DNA from: Cellulomonas citrea
GTDB taxonomy: Bacteria > Actinomycetota > Actinomycetes > Actinomycetales > Cellulomonadaceae
Assembly (NCBI RefSeq): GCF_009829685.1
Contig: NZ_VWSD01000015.1
Span: forward strand, 1-36,375
Length of the DNA stretch: 36,375 nucleotides
Direction of reading: 5' to 3'
Shown: one piece after another, positions 13,761 through 31,100 of the stretch
Numbering within the stretch: the first letter of the stretch is position 1
Layout of the letters: each line of letters opens with the position of its first letter
Made by a program: the position numbers and the translations under genes
Notes under the pieces: model-generated
Told to the model about the DNA's origin: nothing
Database searches by the model: none
Seen by the model: only the letters and a program-made list of their open reading frames with translations

Positions 13761-14642
13761 TCAGCCTGCGGCGCGCTCGGCGATCTCGACGACGTTGGCC
13801 AGGAGCATCGCACGGGTCATCGGACCGACGCCGCCGGGGTTCGGCGACACCCAGGCCGCGACCTCGCGCACGTCGGGGTGCACGTCCCCGGCGACCCGCG
13901 ACCGACCGGTGGCCTCGTCCACGACGCGCGAGACACCGACGTCGACCACGACCGCACCCGGGGCGACCATGTCGGCGGTGACCAGGCCGGGCACCCCGGC
14001 GGCGGCGACGATGACGTCAGCCGTCCGGGTGAGGGCTGCCAGGTCACGGGTGCCGGTGTGGGTGAGGGTCACCGTGGCGTTGACCTCGCGCCGGGTGAGC
14101 AGCAACCCGATCGACCGCCCTACCGTCACCCCCCGCCCGACGACGACGACGTGCGCGCCGCGCAGCGGGACGTCGTGCCGCACGAGCAGCTCGACGATGC
14201 CCCGCGGGGTGCACGGCAGCGGTGAGGCGACCGGTTCGTTGACCCGCAGCACGAGACGCCCGAGGTTGGTCGGGTGCAGCCCGTCGGCGTCCTTGTCCGG
14301 GTCGACGAGCTCGAGCATCGCCTGGGTGTCGACGCCGGCGGGCAGCGGCAGCTGCACGATGAACCCGGTGCAGGCCGGGTCCTCGTTGAGCCGCCGGATC
14401 GCGGCCTCGACCTGCGCGGGCGTCGCATCGGCGGGCAGGTCCTCGCGGATCGAGGCCAGCCCCACCTGCGCGCAGTCGCGGTGCTTGCCCGCGACGTACA
14501 GCTGGGAGCCCGGGTCGTCGCCGACGAGCAGGGTGCCGAGCCCGGGGTGCACGCCGCGGGCCGCCAGCGCGGCGACCCGCTGCGCGAGCTCGTCCTTGAT
14601 CGAGGCCGCGGTCGCCTTGCCGTCCAGCAGCCGAGCGACCAT
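13761..14642 (-). CDS. folD: Bifunctional methylene-THF dehydrogenase / methenyl-THF cyclohydrolase
   Basis: 293 residues. FolD interconverts 5,10-methylene-, methenyl- and 10-formyl-tetrahydrofolate with NADP+, in the cytosol. The catalytic lysine is K53 in [12 protein letters not shown]. Other signatures are IVQLPLPAG, the nucleotide-binding [17 protein letters not shown] and the C-terminal [17 protein letters not shown]. The residue after the nucleotide-loop VGR is Gly where many homologues have Ser; this is a minor variation. The ATG overlaps the glyA stop by 1 nt (TGATG), so the two are translationally coupled and share control by the riboswitch ahead of glyA. Length is normal. Confidence 0.97.
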
Positions 14643-15925
14643 CAGTACTGCACCAGGTCGGCGTAGAGCGGCAGCCGTGCGGCGAGCGCGGCCGTGCGGG
14701 TGCGCAGCGCGGCCACGTCGGTGGCGGCGCCCTGCACGAGCGCCGTCGCGATGACGTCGGCGACCTCGGTGAACTCCGCGTCGCCGAAGCCGCGGGTGGC
14801 CAGCGCCGGGGTGCCGATCCGCAGCCCGGAGGTCACCATCGGCGGCCGGGGGTCGTTCGGCACGGCGTTGCGGTTCACCGTGATGCCGCACTCGTGCAGC
14901 AGGTCCTCGGCCTGCTTGCCGTCGATCGCGGCGTCGCGCAGGTCGACGAGCACGAGGTGCACGTCGGTGCCGCCCGACCGCACCGAGATCCCGGCAGCGG
15001 CGACGTCGGGTGCGGTGAGCCGCTCCGCGAGGATCGCCGCACCGCGCACGGTGCGCTCCTGGCGGTCACGGAACTGCGGCGTCGCGGCGATCTTGAACGC
15101 CACGGCCTTGGCGGCCACGACGTGCATGAGCGGCCCGCCCTGCTGACCGGGGAAGACGGCGGAGTTGATCTTCTTCGCCAGCTCGGCGTCGTTGGTGAGG
15201 ATGAAGCCGGAGCGGGGCCCGCCGATGGTCTTGTGCACGGTGGAGGACACGACGTGCGCGTGCGGCACCGGGGACGGGTGCAGCCCTGCGGCGACCAGAC
15301 CGGCGAAGTGCGCCATGTCGACCCACAGGTAGGCGCCGACCTCGTCGGCGATCTCGCGGAACCGGGCGAAGTCGAGCTGGCGGGGGTAGGCCGACCAGCC
15401 GGCGATGAGCACCTTCGGCCGGTGCTCGAGGGCGAGCCGGCGCACCTCGTCCATGTCGACGAGGGACGTGGTCGGGTCGACCCCGTAGGCCGCGACCTTG
15501 TAGAGCCGGCCGGAGAAGTTGATCTTCATGCCGTGCGTGAGGTGGCCGCCCTGGTCGAGGGCCAGGCCCAGGATGGTGTCGCCGGGCCGGGCCAGCGCGT
15601 GCAGCACGGCGGCGTTGGCGGTGGCGCCCGAGTGCGGCTGGACGTTGGCGAACTGGGCGCCGAACAGGGACTTGGCACGCTCGATGGCGATCGTCTCGGC
15701 GACGTCCACCTCTTCGCAGCCGCCGTAGTACCGGCGGCCCGGGTACCCCTCGGCGTACTTGTTGGTGAGCACGGAGCCCTGTGCCTGCAGGACGGCGCGG
15801 GGCACGAAGTTCTCCGAGGCGATCATCTCGAGCGTCTGCTGCTGGCGGGCCAGCTCGGCGTCGAGGACCGCGGCGATCTCCGGGTCGAGCTCGGCGATGC
15901 CCTGGTTCATCAGGTCGTCGGTCAT
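14642..15925 (-). CDS. glyA: Serine hydroxymethyltransferase
   Basis: 427 residues. It transfers the serine hydroxymethyl group to tetrahydrofolate, giving glycine and methylene-THF, using pyridoxal phosphate. The PLP lysine is K232 in [21 protein letters not shown] (203-210) holds the cofactor Asp and His; [10 protein letters not shown] (33-42) and [15 protein letters not shown] (55-69) are further SHMT signatures. Start ATG at 15925 has AGGAG five nt upstream; the longer reading would add 16 residues from the leader. It is the first gene of glyA-folD and is preceded by a ZTP riboswitch, so it is probably raised when folate-dependent purine synthesis stalls. Confidence 0.98.
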
Positions 15926-15947
15926 GGGTTCTCCTGGCGGACGAGCC

Positions 15948-15961
15948 GGCCGCACGCGGCC
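15948..15961 (-). promoter_or_regulatory. Leader hairpin before glyA RBS
   Basis: GGCCGC, 2 nt, GCGGCC: a perfect GC hairpin between the ZTP aptamer and the AGGAG RBS. It may be part of the expression platform (terminator-like without U-tract, or affecting ribosome access). How it would switch is not visible. Confidence 0.45.
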
Positions 15962-15980
15962 AGCACCGGACAAGGTGATG

Positions 15981-18326: not shown

Positions 18327-19118
18327 TCAGATCGCCGAGCGCAGCCGCGGCCCGGCGGTCGTCGCACCCGTGATCGCCGCCAGGATGTCCTCGTAGCTCG
18401 CGGTCGCCGCGTCGAACGACCCGTTGTTGCGCCCGTGCCGCAGCACCTCGATGCGGTCGGACACCGCCCGAACATCGTTCATGTTGTGGCTGATGAGGAT
18501 GACGCCGAGCCCCAGGTCGCGCAGCCGTTCGATGTGTGTGAGGACCTCGGCGGTCTGCACCACCGACAGGGCGGCCGTCGGCTCGTCGAGCACGACGATC
18601 CGCGGCTCGCCGATGAGCGTGCGGGCGATGGCGACCGCCTGCCGCTGACCGCCGGACAGCTGGTTGAGCGGGGTGCGCGCGGACGGCACCCGCGCCCGCA
18701 GCCGCTGCAGCGCTTCCCGGGTGACGTGCTCCATCCGGGCCTCGTCGAGCATGCCAGTACCCGTGCGCAGCTCGCGCCCGAGGAAGATGTTGGCGGTCAC
18801 GTCGAGGTTCTCGCAGACCGCGAGGTCCTGGAACACGGTGGCCACGCCCATCTCGAGCGCCGACGAGGGCGAGCCGACGGCGACCTGCTCACCGTCGATC
18901 TCGATCAGCCCGGCGTCGGGGACCAGCACCCCCGAGATGACCTTGGCCAGCGTCGACTTGCCCGCACCGTTGTCACCGACGAGCGCGACCACCTCGTGGG
19001 CGTGCACCGTGAGGTCGACCCCGACCAGCGCCTCGACCGCGCCGAAGCGCACGCTGACCTCGCGCATCGAGAGCAGCGGGACACGACCCGGCCGTCCGGC
19101 GCCGTCGCCTGGGCTCAT
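18327..19118 (-). CDS. Single-NBD sugar ABC ATPase (FrcA-like), module 1
   Basis: 263 residues, one complete nucleotide-binding domain: Walker A GDNGAGKST (48-56), Q-loop VFQDLAVCENLDV (Q97), signature LSGGQRQ (154-160), Walker B RIVVLDEP (173-180), switch His in LISHNMNDV (H211). The style is that of single-domain monosaccharide ATPases such as FrcA, or XylG-type ATPases next to ROK regulators in Streptomyces. Half-length compared with the tandem-NBD ATPase encoded in the same module. It lies 62 bp after the ROK regulator gene and no permease follows. It may replace the tandem ATPase on the module permease, serve a permease elsewhere, or act with the regulator; the sequence does not decide. 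RBS GAGGAG lies 11 nt before the ATG. Confidence 0.93.
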   Translation of the reverse strand: MSPGDGAGRPGRVPLLSMREVSVRFGAVEALVGVDLTVHAHEVVALVGDNGAGKSTLAKVISGVLVPDAGLIEIDGEQVAVGSPSSALEMGVATVFQDLAVCENLDVTANIFLGRELRTGTGMLDEARMEHVTREALQRLRARVPSARTPLNQLSGGQRQAVAIARTLIGEPRIVVLDEPTAALSVVQTAEVLTHIERLRDLGLGVILISHNMNDVRAVSDRIEVLRHGRNNGSFDAATASYEDILAAITGATTAGPRLRSAI

Positions 19119-19180
19119 CAGCTCACCTGCTCCTCATCGGGCCTGTGTCTTGTGAAGTGAAGTCCTGCGGTCTGCGGCCG

Positions 19181-20383
19181 TCAACCGAGACCCCGCCAGG
19201 TCATCGGTTCGAGCTCGTCGCGCGTCACCAGGTCCGTGGACTGCAGCACGAGCTGCAGCGCACCGGTCACCTCGGCCCGCTCCCCGAGCGCGGCCGGGAA
19301 CACCTCGAGCGGGGCGATCTGGTTGAGCAGCACGCGACGACGGATGGCCTCGCGCAGCGGTCCGGTGAGCACCTCGCCGGTCTCGGCGAGCTCGCCCCCG
19401 ACGACGACGCACTGCGGGTTGACCGCCACGCAGAGCCCGGCGACCACCGCCCCGATGGTGGCACCGGCGTCGGCGATGACCTGCCGGCAGCCCGGGTCGC
19501 CCTCGTTCGCCGCGGCGATCACGTCGCGCAGCGCGAGCGCGCCGTGGCTGGCCCGCAGCGGTTCGAGCAGTGCCTGGGAGCCCACCACGGTGTCCAGGCA
19601 GCCGCGGGAGCCGCACAGGCAGATCCGGCCCGACGGGTCGACCTGCACGTGCCCGATCTCACCGGCCGTCCCGGCGAAGCCGCGGTGCAGCCGGCCACCG
19701 ATCACCAGACCGGCCCCGGTGCCGTACGAGGCGCGCACGTAGATGGAGTCCTGGTACTGCCGGGAGGCGCCCAGCGTGCTCTCCGCGAGCCCGCCGAGGT
19801 TCGCGTCGTTGTCGACGAAGACCGGACGGGCGAGCCGCTTGGACAGCACGTGCGCGACCGGCACCTCGTCCCAGCCCCGCATGATCCCCTTGACCGAGAC
19901 CATGCCGGTGGCCACGTCGACCGGGGCCGGCAGCCCGACCCCGATGCCCAGCACCTCGTCGAGCGAGGCGCCCATCCGGTCGAGCAGGTCCGTGATGAGC
20001 AGCGCGGCCCGGTCCAGCGTGGTGTCCACCCGGTGCTGCGCCGGTAGCGGCAGCAGCTGCTCGGCGACCACGTCGTGCGCGACGTCCCCGAGGACCACCC
20101 GCATGTGCCGCAGCCCGATGTGCACCCCGACCGCGAGCCCGACCCTGCGGGCGAGCGTGACGAGCTGGGCGCGCCGCCCGGTCCGCACGGTGCTGCGCAC
20201 CTCGACCAGCTCGGCACCGACGAGCTCCTTGACGATCGTGGAGACCGTCGCGGCCGACAGCCCGGTCGCCCCGGTGAGCTCGACCTGGGTCAGCCCGCCG
20301 TGCTGCTTGAGCGCGTCGAGGATGAGCCCGCGGTTCGCCCCACGCAGGGCCGACTGCGAGCCCGCCGCCGGGCGATCTGCCAT
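19181..20383 (-). CDS. ROK-family transcriptional regulator, module 1
   Basis: 400 residues. A winged helix-turn-helix (about 14-75; GGLTQVELTGATGLSAATVS, recognition helix around SAATVSTIVKEL) precedes a ROK sugar-kinase-like domain. The latter has the sugar-site GEIGHVQVD and the zinc motif CLCGSRGC. Members bind DNA as repressors (or activators) and release it on binding a sugar or sugar phosphate; examples are XylR, NagC, Mlc and Rok7B7. Its ATG follows a TAGGCT box by 6 nt (leaderless), and a strong hairpin separates it from the permease, so it has its own transcript. The probable target is the inverted repeat at 24565-24589 ahead of the module-1 binding-protein gene. Ligand unknown. Confidence 0.94.
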   Translation of the reverse strand: MADRPAAGSQSALRGANRGLILDALKQHGGLTQVELTGATGLSAATVSTIVKELVGAELVEVRSTVRTGRRAQLVTLARRVGLAVGVHIGLRHMRVVLGDVAHDVVAEQLLPLPAQHRVDTTLDRAALLITDLLDRMGASLDEVLGIGVGLPAPVDVATGMVSVKGIMRGWDEVPVAHVLSKRLARPVFVDNDANLGGLAESTLGASRQYQDSIYVRASYGTGAGLVIGGRLHRGFAGTAGEIGHVQVDPSGRICLCGSRGCLDTVVGSQALLEPLRASHGALALRDVIAAANEGDPGCRQVIADAGATIGAVVAGLCVAVNPQCVVVGGELAETGEVLTGPLREAIRRRVLLNQIAPLEVFPAALGERAEVTGALQLVLQSTDLVTRDELEPMTWRGLG

Positions 20384-20395
20384 GGTCTGAGCCTA
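20384..20395 (-). promoter_or_regulatory. -10 box for leaderless ROK regulator 1
   Basis: On the minus strand TAGGCT (20390-20395), 6 nt, then ATG at 20383. Same layout as ROK regulator 2. Confidence 0.6.
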
Positions 20396-20415
20396 TCGAC
20401 GCAGGTCGGACGAAT

Positions 20416-20456
20416 GGTGCACGGCCCGGCGCCACGCGGGCGCCGGGCCGTGCACC
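20416..20456 (-). terminator. 18-bp perfect hairpin after module-1 permease
   Basis: Arms 20416-20433 and 20439-20456 are perfectly complementary (GGTGCACGGCCCGGCGCC and its complement) with a 5-nt loop, 6 nt after the permease stop. It should end the binding protein-ATPase-permease transcript before the ROK gene. Confidence 0.8.
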
Positions 20457-20462
20457 GCCGGC

Positions 20463-21640
20463 TCAGCGAGCGGCGGCAGCCCGTCGCTTGTTGTAGATGT
20501 CGAACGCCACCGCGAGCAGCAGCACCAGACCCTTGACGACCTGCTGGATGGACTGGTCGATGCCGAGCAGCTGCATGCCGTTGCTCATCACGGCCATCAC
20601 CAGACCACCGACCATGGCACCGCCGACCCGGCCGATGCCGCCCGAGACGGACGCCCCGCCGATGAAGCAGGCGGCGATCGCGTCGAGCTCGAACATGTTG
20701 CCTGCGGCCGGCTGGGCGCTGTTGGAGCGCGAGGAGTAGACGATGCCGGCCACCGAGGCCAGCACGCCCATGTTGACGAAGATCCAGAAGTTGACCTTCT
20801 TCACCTTGACGCCGGACAGCTGAGCGGCGTTGAGGTTGCCGCCGATGGCGTACACGTGGCGGCCGAACACGGTCTTCGTCGTGACCACCGAGTAGGTCAT
20901 GATGAGGACGGCCATGATGATGAGCACGATCGGCAGCCCGCGGCTGCTGGCCAGCCGGTACGCGAACGCCATGACGACGGCGGCCACGAGGACGATCTTC
21001 GCGACGAACAGCGGCATCGCCTCGACCGCCTGCTGGTACTTGAGGCGGCCCTGCCGGCTGCGGTACTGGCTGTAGGCGAACCCGGCGATCCCGATCGCGG
21101 CGATGACCAGCGTGAAGACGTCGTAGCCGTTCCCACCGAGGATGCCGTTGAGGAAGCCACCGGCGATCTTCTGGTACTCCGGCGGGAAGGGCGACAGCGA
21201 GATGTTGTTGAGCACCCGCAGCGTGAGCCCGCGGAACAGGAGCATGCCGGCCAGCGTCACGATGAACGCCGGCACTCCGACGTAGGCGACCCAGAAGCCC
21301 TGCCAGGCCCCGACCACGAGGCCGACCGCGAGCGCCGCGAGCACACCGGCCCACCACGGTCCGCCGTGCTTGATGACGACGATCGCCGAGACGGCCCCGG
21401 TGAGCGCCACCACCGAGCCGACGGACAGGTCGATGTGCCCGGCGACGATGACGATGAGCATGCCGAGGGCGAGGATCAGCACGTAGGAGTACTGGAGCAC
21501 GATGTTCGTGAGGTTCTCCGGGCCGATCGACACCCCCTTGGTGAGCACGGCGAAGAGGGCCACGATCGCGACGAACGCGATGTAGATGCCGCTCTGGCGC
21601 AGGTTCCTCGTGAGCAGGTCCCGCAGGGAGGTGACGACGT

Positions 21641-21644
<4 letters not shown>
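20463..21644 (-). CDS. mmsB: Monosaccharide ABC permease (MmsB/GguB/XylH-like), module 1
   Basis: 393 residues, about ten hydrophobic segments, no NBD: a homodimeric permease of the ribose/xylose (CUT2) class. Family signatures are [20 protein letters not shown] in the second/third helix region and [20 protein letters not shown] further on; [19 protein letters not shown] near the C-terminus is the conserved cytoplasmic coupling loop. Its length and the partner genes fit the multiple-monosaccharide permease GguB/MmsB best. The ATG overlaps the ATPase stop by 4 nt (ATGA). It transports the sugar delivered by the lipoprotein at 23277-24431. Confidence 0.94.
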
Positions 21645-23182
<1,538 letters not shown>

Positions 23183-23214
23183 GCCTCGCTCCGTCCTTCG
23201 TGGGTGGGCACGAC

Positions 23215-23253
23215 ACCCGGGTCGGCCGGCGGGGTGCGCCGGCCGACCCGGGT
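23215..23253 (-). terminator. 17-bp attenuator-like hairpin, module 1
   Basis: Arms 23215-23231 and 23237-23253 are perfectly complementary with a 5-nt loop, in the gap between the binding-protein and ATPase genes. In this position such hairpins usually protect the 3' end of the binding-protein mRNA or partly terminate, giving more binding protein than membrane components. Confidence 0.75.
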
Positions 23254-23276
23254 CCGTGCAGGGTGCTGCGGGAGCG

Positions 23277-24431
23277 TCAGCCTGCCTGGCCGGCCTTGAC
23301 CTCGGCCTCGGTGTAGTACCCGGAGTCGATGAGCAGGGACTTGATGTTGTCCTTGTAGACGATGTCGGACTGCAGGAGGAAGGACGGCACGACCTTCACG
23401 CCGTTGTTGTACGACTTGGTGTCGTTCGCCTCGGGGGTCTTGCCCGCCATGAAGGCCGAGGCCGAGGTGACGGCCTGGTCGGCCAGCTTGCGGGTGTCCT
23501 TGAAGATGGTCGCGAACTGCACGCCGTCGTTGATCAGCTTGACCGAGGCGATCTCGGCGTCCTGACCGGTGACGATCGGCAGGCCCTGGGCGATCGTCGG
23601 GCCGTAGCCCGCGTTCTGCAGCGCGGTGATGATGCCGCGGGAGATGCCGTCGAACGGCGAGAGCACGCCCTGGACCTTGTCACCCTTGGAGTAGGTGGAG
23701 GTCAGCAGGTCCTCCATGCGCTTCTGCGCGGTCTCCTGGCTCCAGCGCAGCGTCGCGGCCTGCTCGATGCTGGTCTGGCCGGACTTGACGACGAGGGTGC
23801 CCTTGTCCATGTACGGCTTGAGCGTGTCGATCGCACCGTCGAAGAAGAACTTGGCGTTGTTGTCGTCGAGCGAACCGGCGAACAGCTCGATGTTGAACGG
23901 CCCGGTGGCCTTGCCCGCGGACCCGTCGGCGTTGAGGATGCCGAGGCCGACGAGCAGCGACGTGGCCTGCTGGACGCCGACCTTGTAGTTGTCGAACGTC
24001 ACGTAGAAGTCGACGTTCGCGCTGTCCCGGATGAGGCGGTCGTACGAGATGACCTTGATGCCCTTGTCGGCGGCGCTCTGCAGCTGGTTGGCCAGCGCGG
24101 TGCCGTCGATGGAGGCGACGATCAGGAGCTTGGCGCCCTTGGTGATCATCTGGTCGATCTGCTGCTGCTGGGTCGGGATGTCGTCGCCCGCGTACTCCAG
24201 GTCGACGGTGTAGCCCGCCTTCTCCAGCCCGTCCTTGACGGCCTTGCCGTCGTTGATCCAGCGCTCGGAGGTCTGCGTCGGCATCGCGACGCCGATGAGG
24301 CCACCGGCCGCGGCCGACGAGCCACCCGTCGAGCCGGAACCGCTGCCCGCACCGGCACCGCCGCCCGAGCAGGCGGCCAGGCCGAGCGCCATGACGGCCC
24401 CCACGGCCGCGACGAAGATCTTTGTCCTCAT
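23277..24431 (-). CDS. chvE: ChvE-like sugar-binding lipoprotein, module 1
   Basis: 384 residues. Signal peptide with lipobox LAAC (C21), then a Gly/Ser linker and a type-I periplasmic-binding fold. From memory of Agrobacterium ChvE, the protein is colinear with it along the mature chain: [76 protein letters not shown] and [11 protein letters not shown]. ChvE and its actinobacterial relatives bind several monosaccharides (galactose, arabinose, glucose, xylose), feeding GguAB/MmsAB; here the lipoprotein would be tethered outside the membrane. Start ATG 24431 is chosen because it opens directly on MRTKIF and the hydrophobic signal; the longer reading adds 43 unrelated residues. Confidence 0.94.
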
Positions 24432-24564
24432 GTCTTCAACCCTTCTCGTCATCGAGAGTGCGCTGCGCCCGTCGTCGGGGCGGTGAGGAGGGCTGGTGCC
24501 CACCTCGCCGTTGACCCGGGCTCCCGACGGCCACAGTGGCGACGGGACCAGCGCGACCACTGTG

Positions 24565-24589
24565 CTTGTCTTCGGTTCTCGAAGTCAAG
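24565..24589. promoter_or_regulatory. 25-bp inverted repeat, probable ROK operator (module 1)
   Basis: CTTGTCTTCG (24565-24574), 5-nt spacer GTTCT, CGAAGTCAAG (24580-24589): 9 of 10 arm positions are complementary. A possible -35, TTGACT, sits in one arm, so binding would block transcription of the binding-protein operon. Regulator 1 (19181-20383) is the natural candidate. Confidence 0.65.
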
Positions 24590-24641
24590 GGCGCGAGGGT
24601 GGGATGCGATTGCGGTTCGATAACAGTCAGATCGCGAATTC

Positions 24642-24653
24642 GTGAGCGCTCAC
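24642..24653. promoter_or_regulatory. GTGAGCGCTCAC palindrome
   Basis: Perfect 12-bp palindrome with the CG-centred GAGCGCTC core typical of LacI/GalR-family operators (compare the symmetric lac operator and CebR sites). No LacI-family gene is in the window, so the regulator, if any, is encoded elsewhere. Confidence 0.5.
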
Positions 24654-24804
24654 ACGGCCTCCGCGCGGCGCCGCACGCACCCTCGCACCCCCGGAGGGCC
24701 CCCACCTGGGCAAATGGGACCAAGGCGAGCCACATCGGCCGCACACAGCGGGCTCATTGGCTTCTAGAGTCGAACAGTGAGAGGAGCTGCGCTCCCCCGC
24801 CGGC

Positions 24805-25578
24805 TCAGACCACCTGCAGCCGCCGCGGTGCGACGCGGGCCCCCGTCATCGCGCCGATGAGCTCCTCCTGGCTCGTGGTCGCGGTGTCGAACGAGCCGTG
24901 GTTGCGCCCGTGCCGCAGCACCTCGACCCGGTCCGCCACCGCGAGCACGTCCGTCATCGAGTGGCTGATGAAGACGACCCCCAGCCCCAGGTCGCGCAGC
25001 CGCTGGACGTGGATGAGCACCTCCGCCGTCTGCGGGATGGACAGCGCGGCGGTGGGCTCGTCCAGCACCACCACCCGCGGCTGGCCGATGAGCGTGCGCG
25101 CGATCGCGACCGCCTGGCGCTGACCGGCCGACAGCTCCCGCAACGGGGTCCGGGCCGACGGGATCCGGCTCGCCAGGGAGTCCAGCACCTGGACCGCGAT
25201 CTCCTCCATGCGCGCGTCGTCGCGGCCGAACGGCCCGCGCAGCTCACGCCCGAGGAACAGGTTCGACGTGACGTCGAGGTTGTCGCACAGCGCCAGGTCC
25301 TGGAACACCATCTCCACGCCCTGCGCCCGGGCCGCCGCCGGGTTGGGCAGCACCACCGGGTGACCACCCAGCTCGACCACACCCGCGTCCGGGGACAGCA
25401 CCCCCGCGACGATCTTGGCCAGCGTCGACTTGCCCGCGGCGTTGTCGCCCACGACGGCGACGACCTCGTGCGACCGGACCTGCAGGTCGACGTCCACGAG
25501 TGCCTCGACCGCCCCGAAGCACTTGGTGATGCCCTGCAACGACAGCAGGACGTCGACGCTCTCCGGCGAGGTTCCCAT
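24805..25578 (-). CDS. Single-NBD sugar ABC ATPase (FrcA-like), module 2
   Basis: 257 residues, paralogue of the ATPase at 18327-19118 and colinear with it. Walker A GDNAAGKST (44-52), Q-loop VFQDLALCDNLDV, signature LSAGQRQ (149-155; second residue Ala where LSGGQ is usual), Walker B RVVVLDEP (168-175), switch H206 in FISHSMTDV. All catalytic residues are present, so it should hydrolyse ATP. It lies 49 bp after ROK regulator 2 and, as in module 1, is followed by no permease. The ATG has GAGGAG 6 nt upstream. Its retention in both modules argues for a real role. Confidence 0.93.
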   Translation of the reverse strand: MGTSPESVDVLLSLQGITKCFGAVEALVDVDLQVRSHEVVAVVGDNAAGKSTLAKIVAGVLSPDAGVVELGGHPVVLPNPAAARAQGVEMVFQDLALCDNLDVTSNLFLGRELRGPFGRDDARMEEIAVQVLDSLASRIPSARTPLRELSAGQRQAVAIARTLIGQPRVVVLDEPTAALSIPQTAEVLIHVQRLRDLGLGVVFISHSMTDVLAVADRVEVLRHGRNHGSFDTATTSQEELIGAMTGARVAPRRLQVV

Positions 25579-25627
25579 CAGCTGCTCCTCGATGAGCTGG
25601 GTGGACGATGGTGGTGCAACGCCGTCG

Positions 25628-26821
25628 TCAAACTACCTCGACGGCGGTCTCGGGCGACACCGGAACCGACACCTCCGTCGCCTGCAGTGCCAGCAGCATC
25701 GCGCCCATGACCTCGGCACGCGAGCCGAGCTCGGCCGGCACGATCTCCAGCGGTGCCACGCTGTTGCCGACCACCCGGTGGCCGATCCGCTCCCGCAGCG
25801 GCCCCAGGAACACCTCGCCGGTCTCGGCCAGCTCCCCGCCGACGACCACCACCTGCGGGTTGACCACCATCGCGACGACCGCGACGACGGCACCGACCTG
25901 GGCACCGGCATCGGCCACGACCCGGGCGCACGCCGGTTCGCCGTCACCGGCCCGGCGCACCACGTCCGTGAGCGTGAGCGAGCCGAGCACCGGGCGCACC
26001 GACTCGGCGAGCGCCGCACCGCCGGCCACCGTGTCCAGGCAGCCCCGGTTCCCGCAACGGCACATCCGGCCCTGCGGGTCGACCATGACGTGACCGATCT
26101 CGCCCGCCACGCCCGCGTAGCCGCGGTGCACGTTGCCGGACACCACGACCCCCGCAGACACCCCGTACGAGGCGCGCACGTAGACGACGTCGCGGACCTG
26201 GCGACCGGCACCCAGCGCGCTCTCGGCCAGGGCGCCGACGTTCGCGTCGTTGTCGACGTACACCGGGCGCCCCGTCCGCTTGGACAGCGTCTGGGCGATG
26301 TCCACCCCGTCCCACCCCGGCATCACCCCGGCGACCGAGATGCTCCCGGTGCCGGCCTCCACCGGCGCCGGGACCGCGACGCCGACCCCGGCCACGTCGT
26401 CGAACGACGCGCCGACCCGTTCCAGCAGGTCCGCCATGAGCACCGTCGCACGGTCCAGGCCGGTGTCGACCCGGTGCTCGAAGGGCAGCGGCAGCGTGTG
26501 CTCGGCGATCGGGTGCAGCGCGAAGTCCGCCAGCACGACGTGCACGTGACGCCGGCCGAACTGGATGCCGACCGCCAGGCCCATCCGTCGTGACACGGTG
26601 ACGAGCTGGGCCCGGCGGCCGTTGCGGGTGGTCGTGGCCGTCTCGACGACGCCAGCGGCGAACAGGTCGCGCACGATCGTCGAGACGCTCGCCGGCGAGA
26701 GCCCGGTGGCGGCGGCCAGCTCGATCTGGGTCAGGCCGCCCCACCGCTGCACCGTCTGCAGCACCAGGGCCTTGTTCGCCGCACGCAGCGACGACTGGGA
26801 GCCCGGGGCTTTCCTGACCAC
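25628..26821 (-). CDS. ROK-family transcriptional regulator, module 2
   Basis: 397 residues, colinear paralogue of regulator 1. HTH at about 14-75 (GGLTQIELAAATGLSPASVS; recognition helix around SPASVSTIVRDL, which differs from regulator 1), then a ROK domain with GEIGHVMVD and zinc motif CRCGNRGC. The GTG start (26821) follows TAGGTT by 6 nt, so it is leaderless. It probably controls module 2 through the TTCArGTCnTGAA sites at 30993-31005 and 31088-31100. The different recognition helix agrees with the different operator. Ligand unknown, presumably the sugar imported by module 2 or its phosphate. Confidence 0.94.
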   Translation of the reverse strand: MVRKAPGSQSSLRAANKALVLQTVQRWGGLTQIELAAATGLSPASVSTIVRDLFAAGVVETATTTRNGRRAQLVTVSRRMGLAVGIQFGRRHVHVVLADFALHPIAEHTLPLPFEHRVDTGLDRATVLMADLLERVGASFDDVAGVGVAVPAPVEAGTGSISVAGVMPGWDGVDIAQTLSKRTGRPVYVDNDANVGALAESALGAGRQVRDVVYVRASYGVSAGVVVSGNVHRGYAGVAGEIGHVMVDPQGRMCRCGNRGCLDTVAGGAALAESVRPVLGSLTLTDVVRRAGDGEPACARVVADAGAQVGAVVAVVAMVVNPQVVVVGGELAETGEVFLGPLRERIGHRVVGNSVAPLEIVPAELGSRAEVMGAMLLALQATEVSVPVSPETAVEVV

Positions 26822-26833
26822 GACGCGAACCTA
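26822..26833 (-). promoter_or_regulatory. -10 box for leaderless ROK regulator 2
   Basis: On the minus strand TAGGTT (26828-26833), 6 nt, then GTG at 26821. The region upstream to the permease stop is only 35 bp more, with a weak GGCTCG/CGAGCC hairpin (26836-26859). Confidence 0.6.
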
Positions 26834-26868
26834 CCGGCTCGCTCCCGGCCGACCGAGCCCCGGCACCG

Positions 26869-28095
26869 CTACTGCGTCCCGGCGCGGCGCTTGTTCATCA
26901 GGTCGAAGGCGACCGCCAGCAGCAGCACGAGACCCTTGATCGCCATCTGCCACGACGGGTCGACGGCCATGATCGACAGCCCCATGTTGAGCACGCCCAT
27001 GACGAGGGCACCGACGATCGCCCCGGAGACGCGTCCGATGCCACCGGTCACCGCCGCACCGCCGATGAAGCAGGCCGCGATCGCGTCCAGCTCGTAGTTG
27101 GTGCCCGCCGCGGCGATCGCCGCACCTGAGCGCGCGGTCGTGACCACGGCGGCCACCCCCGCGAGCGCACCGATGTTCACGAAGATCCAGAAGTCGACCT
27201 TGCGCGTGTTCACCCCGGACAGCCGGGCCGCCTGGCGGTTGCCGCCGATCGCGTAGATGTGCCGGCCGAACACGGTGCGCCCCATGACGAACGTGTAGGC
27301 CACGACGAGGGCGCCGACCAGCACGAGGACGATCGGCGTGCCACCGGCCGAGAAGGACAGGATCACGGTGAGCGCCCCGACGCCGGCCGCCACCAGGATG
27401 AGCTTGATCGCGAACACGACGGGCGGCTCGACGTGCAGCCGGTGCTTGCGCAGCGAGATCCGTGCGCGCGCCTGCGAGACCACGATCGCTGCGATGGCCA
27501 GCGCGCCGATCACCAGGGTGACCACGTCGGAGTTCCCGGCGAACCCGAGCACGTTGGGCAACGAGCCCTTGGAGATGTTGATGAACGACGGCGGCAGGCC
27601 CGCGATGGTCTCCCCCACGATGACCAGCGCCAGCCCGCGGAACAGCAGCATGCCCGCCAGCGTCACGATGAAGGCGGGCACGTTGACGTACGCCACCCAG
27701 AAGCCCTGCCAGGCACCGACCAGAGCGCCGACGGCGACCCCGAGCAGCACCGCGACCAGCCACGGCATCCCCCAGTCGCGCATGCTCACCGCGACGATGC
27801 CGCCGACGAAGGCCACCACGGAGCCCACCGACAGGTCGATGTGCCCGGCGACGATGACCATCACCATGCCGATGGCCAGGATCATCACGTAGGCGTTCTG
27901 CTGGAACAGCGCCGCCACGTTGTTGGCCATGAGCAGCTTGCCGCCGGTCAGCCACTGGAACAGCGCGATGATGACGATGAGCGCGGCGACGATGCCGTAC
28001 TGGCGCGCATTGCCACCCAGCCCTTGCAGCCGCCGGCCCCAGGACACGTCGGTGTCCGGCCCCGGGGAGGGCACCAGCTTCGTGTCGGTGCTCAT
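26869..28095 (-). CDS. Monosaccharide ABC permease (XylH/MmsB-like), module 2
   Basis: 408 residues with about ten membrane segments after a 30-residue cytoplasmic N-terminus. Colinear with the module-1 permease: [40 protein letters not shown] and [19 protein letters not shown] are all kept. It overlaps the ATPase stop by 4 nt (ATGA). Partner of the tandem-NBD ATPase at 28092-29639 and the lipoprotein at 29741-30871. Unlike module 1 there is no strong hairpin between its stop and the ROK gene. Confidence 0.94.
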
Positions 28096-29639
28096 CGTGC
28101 GATCACGTCCTTCTCCATGGTCATGTACCTCATGAGGAGCTCCTGGGTCGCGTCGGCCCGGGCGACCTCGCCCGTCACGCGCCCCTGGCTCAGGGTGTAG
28201 ATCCGGTCACAGGTGCCGATCAGCTCGGGCAGCTCCGAGGAGATGAAGACGACCGCCTTCCCCGCATCGGCGAGCCGGTTGATGATCGTGTAGATCTCGT
28301 ACTTGGCCCCCACGTCGATGCCCCGCGTCGGCTCGTCGAGGATGAGCACGTCCGGGTCGGCGAAGATCCACTTGGACAGCACGACCTTCTGCTGGTTGCC
28401 GCCGGACAGCTTGCCGACCAGCGCCGTCACCGACGGGGTCTTGATGTTGAGGTCGCGGCGGTACTGCTCGGCCGTCCGCGCCTCCTCACCCGCATCGATG
28501 ACCCCGTGCCGGGACACCTTGGCGATCGCGGCCGCCGAGATGTTGTGCTGGATGGTGTCGATGAGGTTGAGCCCGTACCGCTTGCGGTCCTCGGTGGCGT
28601 AGGCGATGCCGTGCTCGATCGCGTCCTGCACGGTGTGCACCGAGATCTCGACGCCCGCCTTGTACACGCGCCCGCTGATCCGCGACCCGTAGGTGCGGCC
28701 GAACAGGCTCATCGCGAGCTCGGTGCGTCCGGCCCCCATGAGCCCGGCCAGCCCGACGATCTCGCCGCGCCGCACGGCGATCGAGGCTCCGTCGACGACC
28801 TTGCGGGCCTGGTCGATCGGGTGGTGCACGGTCCAGTCCTCGACCCGCAGCACCTCGTCCCCGATGGTCGGGGTGTGCGCGGGGAACCGGTTGTCCAGCG
28901 GCCGGCCCACCATGCCCCGGATGAGCCGTTCCTCGCTCACCGGTTCGGCCCCGTGCATCGAGACCGTCTCGACGGTGCGGCCGTCCCGCACGATCGTCGT
29001 GGTGTCGGCGATCGAGCGGATCTCGTTGAGCTTGTGGCTGATGATGATCGAGGTGATCCCCACCTCGCGCAGACCGCGGATCAGCCCCAGCAGGTGGGTG
29101 CTGTCCTCGTCGTTGAGGGCCGCGGTCGGCTCGTCCAGGATGAGCAGCCGCACCTCCTTCGACAGCGCCTTGGCGATCTCGACGAGCTGCTGCTTGCCGA
29201 CCCCGATGTCGACCACCCGGGTGTCCGGCCGTTCGGACAGGCCCACGCGCTCCAGGAGCCGCGCCGCGGCCTCGTTGGTCTCGTTCCAGTCGATGACGCC
29301 GCGGGACGCCTGCTCGTTGCCGAGGAAGATGTTCTCCGCGATCGACAGGAACGGCGAGAGCGCCAGCTCCTGGTGGATGATGACGACGCCGCGGCGCTCG
29401 GAGTCACGGATGCTCCGGAACTCCACCGACTCACCGTCGAGCACGATGTCGCCCTCGTAGGTGCCGTGCGGGTAGATGCCCGACAGCACGTTCATCAGGG
29501 TCGACTTGCCTGCACCGTTCTCACCGCAGATGGCGTGGATCTCGCCGCGACGCACCTGCAGGGTCACGTCGTCGAGCGCGACCACGCCGGGGAACCGCTT
29601 GGTGATCCCTCGCATCTCGAGGATGTTCTCGCTGTCCAT
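28092..29639 (-). CDS. Tandem-NBD monosaccharide ABC ATPase, module 2
   Basis: 515 residues, colinear paralogue of the module-1 ATPase. NBD1 has GENGAGKST Walker A, the atypical signature GVGKQQ and LLILDEP Walker B. NBD2 has degenerate GLMGAGRTE, canonical LSGGNQQ and LILDEP, with Ser replacing the switch His. Same asymmetric, single-active-site design as other CUT2 ATPases. The best conserved stretch around [14 protein letters not shown] is shared by both modules. It follows the binding-protein gene after a 101-bp gap with a hairpin. Confidence 0.95.
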
Positions 29640-29663
29640 GTCTCCTCGTCCGGGGTCTGCCGT

Positions 29664-29703
29664 GCTGTGCCGGCCGCACCCAGCGGGGCGCGGCCGGCAC
29701 AGC
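29664..29703 (-). terminator. 14-bp attenuator-like hairpin, module 2
   Basis: Arms 29664-29677 and 29690-29703 (GCTGTGCCGGCCGC and its complement) with a 12-nt loop, between binding-protein and ATPase genes. Same position as the module-1 hairpin but different sequence. Confidence 0.7.
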
Positions 29704-29740
29704 GTCGATCAGGGCCTGATCGGGTCGGTCGTGACCGAGG

Positions 29741-30871
29741 TCACTGACCGAGGTCGGCCTTCGTGTAGAACCCGGAGTCGGTGAGGATGTTCACCGTGTC
29801 CTTGGTGACGACCTGCGGGTCGAGCAGGTAGGTCGGCACGTTCTTGACACCGTTGTTGTAGCTCGTGGTGTCGTTGACGGTGACGTCCTTGCCGGACACG
29901 ATCTCGGACACCATCTTGGCGACCTGGTCACCGAGCTGACGGGTGTCCTTCCAGACGGTCATCGACTGCTTGCCTGCGAGGATGTTGAGCACGTTCGCCT
30001 TGTCGGCGTCCTGGCCGGTGAGCACCGGGTAGCTGTCGCCCGGGGCGTAGCCGGCGCCCTGCAGGGCCTGGGCGATGCCCAGGGCCAGCGAGTCGTTCGG
30101 CGACAGGACGACGTTGACCTTCTTGTCCGTGTAGAACGAGTTGAGCCGGTTCTGCATCTCCGACTGCGCGGTGTCCGAGCTCCAGCCCTGGATGCCGATC
30201 GAGGCCCAGTCGTCGTCCGTCTTCGGCGCCTTGCCGGACGGGACGACCAGCTGGCCCTTCTGCACGTACGGGTTGAGCACGTCCCACGCACCGGCGAAGA
30301 AGAACTTCGCGTTGTTGTCGTCGGGCGACCCGGCGAACGGCTCGAGGTTGAACGGGCCCTTGCCGTCGGCCAGACCGAGGGCCTTCTCGATGTACTGGCC
30401 CTGCATCTTGCCGACGCCGTAGTTGTCGAACGTCGCGTAGTAGTCGACGTTCGGGGTCTTGTTGATGAGCCGGTCGTAGGCGATGACCTTGATGCCGGCG
30501 GCGGCGGCGGTGTCGAGCACCGGGCCGAGCGCCGTACCGTCGATCGAGGCGATGACCAGGACCTTGGCGCCCTGGTTGATCATGTTCTGCAGCTGGGTGA
30601 TCTGCTGGTCGACCTTGTTGTCGGCGTACTGCAGGCTGGTCTTGAACCCGTCCGCCTTGAGCAGCTCCTCCAGGTGGGCGCCGTCCCGGTTCCAGCGCTC
30701 GAGGCTCTTGGTCGGCATCGCGATGCCGATGAGCGTGTCGCTGGCCGCGGCGGTCCCGCTCGACGTGCTGCCCGAGGTCGAGCTACGGGTCGAGCTGCAT
30801 GCCGCCACCGAGCTGACCATGAGGCCGAGCCCGACGACGCCGGCCGCGACCTTCCTCCATGAAAGTGACAT
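29741..30871 (-). CDS. XylF/ChvE-type sugar-binding lipoprotein, module 2
   Basis: 376 residues. Signal peptide with lipobox VAAC (C25), Ser/Thr linker, type-I binding fold. Homologous to the module-1 lipoprotein, but several pocket segments differ and look more like E. coli XylF as I remember it: SLERWNRD (XylF LERWQKD), LSPNDSLALG (XylF NDATAGG), TGQDADKANV (XylF GQDADLAGI), and a Trp in IQGWSSDTAQ. The ligand is therefore likely a monosaccharide different from module 1, with D-xylose the best guess. It is the first gene of the module-2 transcript. Confidence 0.93.
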   Translation of the reverse strand: MSLSWRKVAAGVVGLGLMVSSVAACSSTRSSTSGSTSSGTAAASDTLIGIAMPTKSLERWNRDGAHLEELLKADGFKTSLQYADNKVDQQITQLQNMINQGAKVLVIASIDGTALGPVLDTAAAAGIKVIAYDRLINKTPNVDYYATFDNYGVGKMQGQYIEKALGLADGKGPFNLEPFAGSPDDNNAKFFFAGAWDVLNPYVQKGQLVVPSGKAPKTDDDWASIGIQGWSSDTAQSEMQNRLNSFYTDKKVNVVLSPNDSLALGIAQALQGAGYAPGDSYPVLTGQDADKANVLNILAGKQSMTVWKDTRQLGDQVAKMVSEIVSGKDVTVNDTTSYNNGVKNVPTYLLDPQVVTKDTVNILTDSGFYTKADLGQ

Positions 30872-30991: not shown

Positions 30992-31020
30992 ATTCAAGTC
31001 CTGAACGCTAGGTCTGACAA
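30992..31020 (-). promoter_or_regulatory. Promoter of the module-2 binding-protein operon
   Basis: On the minus strand TTGTCA (-35, 31015-31020), 17-bp spacer, TTGAAT (-10, 30992-30997). The proximal operator overlaps the -10 and spacer, the standard arrangement for repression. Confidence 0.55.
30993..31005. promoter_or_regulatory. TTCAAGTCCTGAA, probable proximal ROK operator (module 2)
   Basis: Palindromic 13-mer (TTCA...TGAA) overlapping the predicted -10. Matches the distal site at 31088 except at two positions. Confidence 0.55.
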
Positions 31021-31087
31021 GTCCCGTTACCGAACCGTGTCCGAGGGGGCTGGATCGCTGCGGATGCGCTCCCATCGACCTTTGGGG

Positions 31088-31100
31088 TTCAGGTCGTGAA
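31088..31100. promoter_or_regulatory. TTCAGGTCGTGAA, probable distal ROK operator (module 2)
   Basis: Second copy of the TTCArGTCnTGAA palindrome, centred 95 bp from the proximal one, close to nine helical turns, so looping is possible. Confidence 0.5.

What the first reader, a model, noticed from the sequence alone, without database searches (positions are those of the whole stretch)
18327..30871. Tandem, colinear five-gene sugar importer/ROK modules
Two adjacent blocks of nearly equal length (6105 and 6067 bp) carry the same five gene families in the same order and strand, with the same overlaps (4-nt ATPase/permease) and a hairpin after the binding-protein gene in each. Every protein pair aligns by eye along its length, yet pocket residues, operators and hairpin sequences have diverged. 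This looks like duplication of a whole import-plus-sensing cassette followed by specialisation. The two could form a graded or cross-talking sugar sensing system.
Basis: partly seen in the sequence, partly recalled or inferred. Interest (0 to 1): 0.72.

Follow-up and report, generated by a model that had tools for sequence, protein, structure and literature searches.

The report
Two sugar importers with looped switches
A Cellulomonas bacterium carries two look-alike sugar-import gene sets side by side; gene trees suggest they were put together from parts of different age rather than copied as one block, and each has a pair of helix-phased DNA sites that probably serve its own repressor.

Summary
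In detail: two five-gene blocks (6067 and 6105 bp), same order and strand, 4-nt ATPase/permease overlaps, a strong hairpin after each binding-protein gene. Both encode complete ChvE-GguA-GguB importers (six of six proteins pass NCBIfam cut-offs), followed by a ROK regulator and a lone single-domain ABC ATPase. Duplication of the whole cassette is not supported. A-B distance relative to orthologues is 2.3, 1.6 and 2.8 for binding protein, ATPase and permease, but 1.02 and 0.97 for ROK and lone ATPase. The grouping found in the ROK and lone-ATPase trees is rejected by all three transporter genes (p 0.0017, 4.9e-5, 1e-64); the reverse test is borderline (p 0.04-0.07). So one ROK-ATPase pair was probably copied onto different, older transporters. 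The window's only four TTC-N7-GAA sites are two upstream of each module. Across relatives the paired sites keep helical phase (13 hand-drawn lineages each: A p<5e-5, B p 0.0036), which points to repression loops, as known for NagC. Of 81 Cellulomonas genomes, 21 hold both types and 10 of these in tandem. Substrate, looping and the lone ATPase's job are untested.

The parts
29741..30871 (-). Module A binding protein, ChvE type
   Evidence: NCBIfam NF040907 470.8 bits, cut-off 460; PDB relatives 4ys6, 3urm, 4wwh
28092..29639 (-). Module A two-domain ATPase, GguA
   Evidence: NF040905 861 bits, cut-off 810
26869..28095 (-). Module A permease, GguB
   Evidence: NF040906 498 bits, cut-off 450; 4-nt overlap with the ATPase gene
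25628..26821 (-). Module A ROK regulator
   Evidence: PF00480 plus winged HTH
24805..25578 (-). Module A lone single-domain ABC ATPase
   Evidence: PF00005; ATPase motifs present; similar ATPases stand in ROK-SBP-ABC-permease and SBP-ABC-permease operons
23277..24431 (-). Module B binding protein, ChvE type (longest ORF starts at 24560)
   Evidence: NF040907 518.7 bits, cut-off 460 (run on the longest ORF); start by signal peptide
21641..23182 (-). Module B two-domain ATPase, GguA
   Evidence: NF040905 865 bits, cut-off 810
20463..21644 (-). Module B permease, GguB
   Evidence: NF040906 542 bits, cut-off 450
19181..20383 (-). Module B ROK regulator
   Evidence: PF00480 plus winged HTH
18327..19118 (-). 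Module B lone single-domain ABC ATPase
   Evidence: PF00005; motifs present
30993..31005 (-). Module A proximal operator-like site TTCAGGACTTGAA, overlapping a TTGAAT -10-like element (promoter read by eye)
31088..31100 (-). Module A distal site TTCACGACCTGAA, 95 bp (9.05 turns) upstream
24571..24583 (-). Module B proximal operator-like site TTCGAGAACCGAA, directly at a TTGACT -35-like element (24583-24588, one base shared; promoter read by eye)
24762..24774 (-). Module B distal site TTCGACTCTAGAA, 191 bp (18.2 turns) upstream, between the two modules
29664..29703 (-). Hairpin after module A binding-protein gene
   Evidence: z -7.3 for the gap; coordinates
23215..23253 (-). Hairpin after module B binding-protein gene
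   Evidence: z -5.2 for the gap; coordinates
20416..20456 (-). Hairpin between module B permease and ROK genes, no counterpart in A
   Evidence: z -5.45 against -1.2 in A; coordinates

Best explanation
Each block is an autoregulated monosaccharide importer of the ChvE-GguAB (CUT2) type. Binding protein, two-domain ATPase and permease import the sugar. The ROK protein represses its own operon by binding two TTC-N7-GAA operators on the same face of the helix and closing a DNA loop at the promoter (A: over the -10 element; B: at the -35), and lets go when a cytoplasmic sugar or sugar phosphate binds. A hairpin after the binding-protein gene helps keep that protein in excess. The lone ATPase is an active FrcA-like subunit inherited with the ROK gene, not with a transporter; most likely it serves a CUT2 permease as a second motor. 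The two blocks were not duplicated as one unit: two transporter types that had already split each came to stand beside a copy of one ROK-ATPase pair. Shown: gene content, homology, tree conflict, site pairs and their phasing. Inferred: promoters, looping, repression, effector release, role of hairpins and of the lone ATPase.
For: Six of six transporter proteins pass equivalog cut-offs. The trees conflict: A+B(+O) without D has support 100/99.8 in ROK and 98/94.9 in the lone ATPase, while A+B without D is rejected by binding protein (p 4.9e-5), permease (p 1e-64) and ATPase (p 0.0017). A-B over orthologue distance: 2.30, 1.60, 2.77 against 1.02, 0.97. Positions fixed differently in A and B: 40, 6, 37 against 1 (ROK) and 0 (lone ATPase); D sides with A at 38 of 40, 3 of 6 and 33 of 37. 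Row L179 has B-type transporter genes with D-like ROK and lone ATPase, and the pair also stands beside a third transporter type O. Distal sites are in 28 of 34 A and 18 of 34 B upstream regions; eight other letter orders in 0-5 of 34. Phasing: R 0.87 (p<5e-5) and 0.64 (p 0.0036), best period 10.8 in both. Hairpins. Lone-ATPase motifs are kept in 62 of 62 rows, with small variants.
Against: Forcing A+D in ROK is not rejected at 0.05 (p 0.066); lone ATPase 0.0395; both joined 0.048. In the lone-ATPase careful tree the A rows form a clade at only 52/63; B as one clade in the joined ROK and lone-ATPase set has p 0.054. The grouping tested was suggested by the ROK tree, and rows were chosen by me after seeing trees. 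L275 and L280 may hold transferred B genes. 16 of 34 B upstream regions have no exact distal site, 8 of them from one lineage. The phasing was seen before it was tested and lineage groups were drawn by hand. No sugar-catabolic gene was found among 11 neighbour ORFs of four loci, so the sugar is open. The one ROK position fixed differently in A and B (R51/K52) is also R in two D rows that carry a B-like operator, so it does not by itself explain operator choice. Four sites in the window are not rare as a number (5 of 100 shuffles reach four); their placement is the point.
Confidence: 0.65

Rival explanations
1. The whole five-gene cassette was duplicated in tandem and then specialised.
For: Same order, strand, overlaps and nearly equal lengths; 9 genomes have the order A then B; modules lie in the same chromosomal slot between icd and glyA in 20 of the 25 genomes where this could be read.
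Against: The five trees do not agree; transporter paralogues are 1.6-2.8 times as far apart as orthologues, ROK and lone ATPase are not; B transporter genes group with rows of two other families.
Confidence: 0.13
2. An old whole-cassette duplication, after which the ROK-ATPase half of A was overwritten by that of B (gene conversion).
For: Would give the same younger age of ROK and lone ATPase and explains the collinearity.
Against: A ROK rows form one clade at 97/98, so at most one ancient event, not continuing exchange; the A-like D type has its ROK-ATPase pair in the opposite orientation; the pair also occurs with type O. It cannot be told apart from recruitment of a copied pair.
Confidence: 0.2
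3. The lone ATPase is a leftover of an old ROK-SBP-ABC-permease operon without function.
For: Similar ATPases in other settings sit in such operons; it has no permease of its own.
Against: ATPase motifs are kept in 62 of 62 rows and 65 of 263 columns are invariant; it follows the ROK gene beside three transporter types.
Confidence: 0.1

Closest known systems
ChvE-GguA-GguB multiple monosaccharide importer (NCBIfam NF040907, NF040905, NF040906)
   Same: All three subunits of both modules pass the cut-offs.
   Different: ROK regulator and lone ATPase in the same block; two copies of different ancestry side by side.
NagC of E. coli, a ROK repressor that needs two operators and a DNA loop
   Same: ROK protein with two operator-like sites, here in helical phase. 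That NagC loops: one passage seen in PMC5401889 and the title of Plumbridge and Kolb 1993 in the reference list of PMC10634360.
   Different: NagC cut-off not reached (187 and 182 of 650 bits); site is TTC-N7-GAA; looping not shown here.
RokB of Streptomyces coelicolor
   Same: ROK regulator; one of its sites is the inverted repeat TTTGTTC-N11-GAACAAA, with TTC and GAA half-sites (passages of PMC4856308).
   Different: Half-sites further apart; other targets; sequences not compared.
Rok7B7 with xylFGH in Streptomyces coelicolor
   Same: ROK regulator of a xylose ABC importer (passages of PMC4848846).
   Different: Streptomyces sequences were not compared here; the importer in the window is ChvE-GguAB type with an extra ATPase.
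AraU with araFGH in Bifidobacterium
   Same: ROK regulator with a conserved motif upstream of a sugar ABC importer (passages of PMC5928203).
   Different: araU is divergent from araFGH in most of those genomes; in A and B modules ROK follows the permease gene. Sequences not compared.

Membership tests
ChvE-GguAB importer | Binding protein, ATPase and permease above curated cut-offs | tested here: met
   471/460, 861/810, 498/450 and 519/460, 865/810, 542/450 bits
ChvE-GguAB importer | Imports several monosaccharides | not testable with these tools
   No assay; no sugar-catabolic gene among 11 neighbour ORFs of four loci
ROK-family sugar repressor | ROK domain with N-terminal winged HTH | tested here: met
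   PF00480 198.5 and 203.6 bits; MarR_2 and HTH_24 matches
ROK-family sugar repressor | Operator in its own control region | tested here: inconclusive
   Conserved paired sites; binding not shown
NagC-like looping repressor | Two operator-like sites in helical phase | tested here: met
   28 of 34 A and 18 of 34 B regions; R 0.87 and 0.64
NagC-like looping repressor | Loop formed in the cell | not testable with these tools
   Needs reporter or footprint work
NagC equivalog | Score over the NF047937 cut-off | tested here: not met
   187 and 182 of 650 bits
Whole-cassette tandem duplication | Five gene trees place A and B alike | tested here: not met
FrcA-type CUT2 transporter ATPase | Single ABC domain with intact motifs | tested here: met
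   the name FrcA is recalled, no FrcA sequence was compared
FrcA-type CUT2 transporter ATPase | Own binding protein and permease beside it | tested here: not met
   Neighbours are ROK and a complete GguAB set

The most novel reading that the evidence does not exclude
The ROK gene and the lone ATPase form a portable control unit: the ATPase no longer drives a transporter of its own but reports transport or energy state to the ROK repressor, and the pair is plugged onto different importers, whose operons it controls by helix-phased DNA loops.
Probability: 0.12. Interest if true: 0.72.

Novelty: new variant of a known kind. Interest (0 to 1): 0.45.

Why it matters
It shows sugar importers in a genus known for degrading plant polymers being built from exchangeable halves: a transporter half that differs strongly between types and a ROK-ATPase half that is nearly type-neutral. 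The paired operators give a simple comparative signature of DNA looping (spacer changes in whole helical turns) that can be tested at the bench and looked for in other ROK operons. The orphan ATPase that follows the regulator, not the transporter, poses a clear question: second motor or sensor.

Tried and rejected
Whole-cassette duplication was tested on five trees and dropped. A decaying lone ATPase was dropped because its motifs are conserved. A species tree from icd and rpoB was made to ask whether tandems arose once; deep forks stay open, so I make no claim; glyA was left out because it shows two identity classes (84-87% and 78-81%). Neighbour genes gave no clue to the sugar (11 ORFs of L145, L154, L155, L172; prfB, ftsE, ftsX, nrdD, a LacI-type regulator, an MFS transporter, a sigma-factor-like ORF, a weak acetoacetate-decarboxylase match, two without a match). 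The idea that R51/K52 sets operator choice was weakened by D rows with R and a B-like site. Paper searches for this combination: searches found 0, one search found 1 unrelated paper; the listings showed none by title or start of abstract.

Limits of the operator test: proximal patterns were loosened after reading the first alignment, so that all 34 A and 34 B regions had a proximal site. Identical upstream regions were counted once. D rows, and binding-protein rows under 60% identity to the window or without a usable signal-peptide start or full upstream stretch, were left out (one search kept 75 regions, copies included). Lineage groups for the phase test were drawn by hand, 13 for A and 13 for B; no row had more than one distal site. 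The phasing was noticed in the output before it was tested.
Full report
What is there. The window lies in a Cellulomonas genome: the nearest named relative of the B lone ATPase is a Cellulomonas record at 91%, and contigs of genomes of the same genus code match named Cellulomonas records in length (for example G060 C1 and C. terrae, 449260 bases). On the minus strand, block A (30871..24805, 6067 bp) and block B (24431..18327, 6105 bp) each hold binding protein (SBP), two-domain ATPase, permease, ROK regulator and a lone ABC ATPase. Identities are 50.7, 70.7, 54.9, 59.2 and 62.6%. Six of six transporter proteins pass the NCBIfam cut-offs for ChvE, GguA and GguB; the ROK proteins pass none of 13 listed families, the lone ATPases none of the best 25 shown.

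Survey. Using the permease as marker, A-type is in 38 and B-type in 51 of 81 genomes of the genus, both in 21, neither in 13 (counted from the listings, A at 69% identity or more, B at 63% or more; 72 of the 81 genomes are at least 90% complete and at most 5% contaminated, so some absences are unsure). Of the 21, nine have A then B in tandem (G000, G007, G012, G044, G047, G053, G065, G072, G079; in G012 only the B binding-protein gene is on the same contig), one has B then A (G032), one cannot be read because of contig ends (G029), and in ten the two types are far apart or on different contigs. Of 30 genomes chosen by me for icd and glyA, 25 have both on one contig, and in 20 of these a module lies between them: the same slot holds A, B, A-B or B-A. 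In G008 the A module lies between prfB and ftsE.

Trees. Rows were labelled by arrangement: A and B collinear; D, A-like transporter genes divergent from a ROK-ATPase pair; O, a ROK-ATPase pair followed by another ATPase-permease-SBP set; F, ROK-SBP-ABC-permease operons used as outgroup. The trees use 66 ROK, 66 lone-ATPase, 62 SBP, 61 ATPase and 63 permease rows; L195 was left out of the last three. In SBP and permease trees A joins D (100*, 99*) and B stands apart (96*, 99*); in the ATPase tree A, B and D are each one clade (98*, 98*, 99*), order open. In ROK and lone-ATPase trees D lies outside (92 and 85, not starred) together with one B row (L179), and A falls among B rows, in the lone-ATPase tree with many open forks. 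With rows of other families added, B transporter genes group with L275 and L280 (100*, 99*, 100*) and A with D (100*, 98*, 100*). L275 and L280 belong to two other families of the order; either the A-B split is older than the family, or those rows came by transfer.

Tests. For smaller row sets chosen by me (34 rows for ROK and lone ATPase, without L179, L193 and L195; 35-36 for the others), A+B(+O) without D is supported 100/99.8 in ROK and 98/94.9 in the lone ATPase. The corresponding grouping A+B without D is rejected by SBP (p 4.9e-5), permease (p 1e-64) and ATPase (p 0.0017). The reverse constraint A+D has p 0.066 in ROK, 0.0395 in the lone ATPase and 0.048 in both joined. Forcing A+B+D without L275 and L280: SBP 0.056 and permease 0.0034, ATPase 0.060. 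Searches used quick trees, and the grouping was suggested by the ROK tree. Independently of trees, in 14 genomes with both modules (13 for SBP) the A-B distance over the window-to-other orthologue distance is 2.30 (SBP), 1.60 (ATPase), 2.77 (permease), 1.02 (ROK), 0.97 (lone ATPase). Positions fixed in at least 90% of A and of B rows but different: 40, 6, 37, 1, 0. So the transporter halves are old and distinct, the ROK-ATPase halves younger and nearly neutral. One ROK-ATPase pair came to stand beside A-type, B-type and O-type transporters.

Control regions. The whole window has four TTC-N7-GAA sites, two upstream of each module and none elsewhere; 1.17 are expected in shuffles, and 5 of 100 shuffles reach four, so the number alone is not rare but the placement is. 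By eye, the proximal site lies over a TTGAAT -10-like element in A (TTCAGGTCTTGAA in 17 of 34 rows, the rest variants) and at TTGACT, a -35-like element, in B (TTGACTTCG in all 32 rows aligned; two further rows read TTGACTTTG). In five D rows a B-like element stands in the SBP direction, clear in L169 and with changes in L180, L192, L194, L197: the operator seems to go with the ROK type. O and F rows show no such site upstream of ROK. In relatives a distal TTC-N7-GAA lies upstream in 28 of 34 A and 18 of 34 B regions; eight other letter orders give 0-5, other spacers 0-2 except N12 (8 and 6). Spacings run 84, 94-96, 115-116, 127-128, 137-139, 160 bp in A and 95-191 in B. One value per hand-drawn lineage gives R 0.87 (p<5e-5 of 20000) and 0.64 (p 0.0036) at 10.5 bp; with the period left free between 9 and 12.5, p is below 7e-4 and 0.0067, best at 10.8 in both. 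The pattern was noticed before it was tested. This is what a repressor loop would leave; NagC, another ROK protein, is reported to work so.

Function. The lone ATPase keeps Walker A, Q-loop, signature, Walker B and H-switch in 62 of 62 A, B, D and O rows, with small variants, so it should be active. Similar ATPases in F-type operons have a permease; the window's genome has one such operon on contig C377. Which permease the lone ATPase serves, if any, is open. Sugars cannot be named from these data: A is nearest in PDB to 4ys6 (340 bits) with ChvE 3urm close (338), B to 4wwh and 3urm (390, 388) against 313 for 4ys6.

Verdict. Ordinary parts, unusual assembly. The new points are the tree-backed mixing of a ROK-ATPase half with three transporter types and the helix-phased site pairs.

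Noticed in passing
L267 (G000 contig C416) 7407-10249, minus: A third ChvE-type binding protein without a permease on its contig stretch overlaps by 4 nt with the gene of a chemoreceptor-like protein (named by eye): perhaps sugar chemotaxis.
   Followed up: partly
L131, L132, L191: A second binding protein (55-58% to B) stands after the lone ATPase of a B module; long-branched in the two rows put in the tree.
   Followed up: no
L155 (G008) and L145 (G052): An A module lies near ftsX, in L155 between prfB and ftsE.
   Followed up: partly
Upstream of A proximal sites (window about 31022-31040) and of some B sites: Further conserved blocks (GGTAACG or GGTCACG before the A -35-like element; GTGATG and TTCG in some B regions) and TTC-N12-GAA in 8 A and 6 B regions are unexplained.
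   Followed up: no
G044 contig C1 3195934-3198594 and 3284954-3287614: Two rpoB copies with equal scores in one genome.
   Followed up: no
window 14642-15973 (glyA) and relatives: glyA falls into two identity classes (84-87% and 78-81%) that cut across close relatives, suggesting recombination.
   Followed up: no
window 20416-20456: A 41-nt hairpin separates permease and ROK genes in B but not A; the median folding energy of this gap is also lower in B than in A relatives, lengths not matched.
   Followed up: partly
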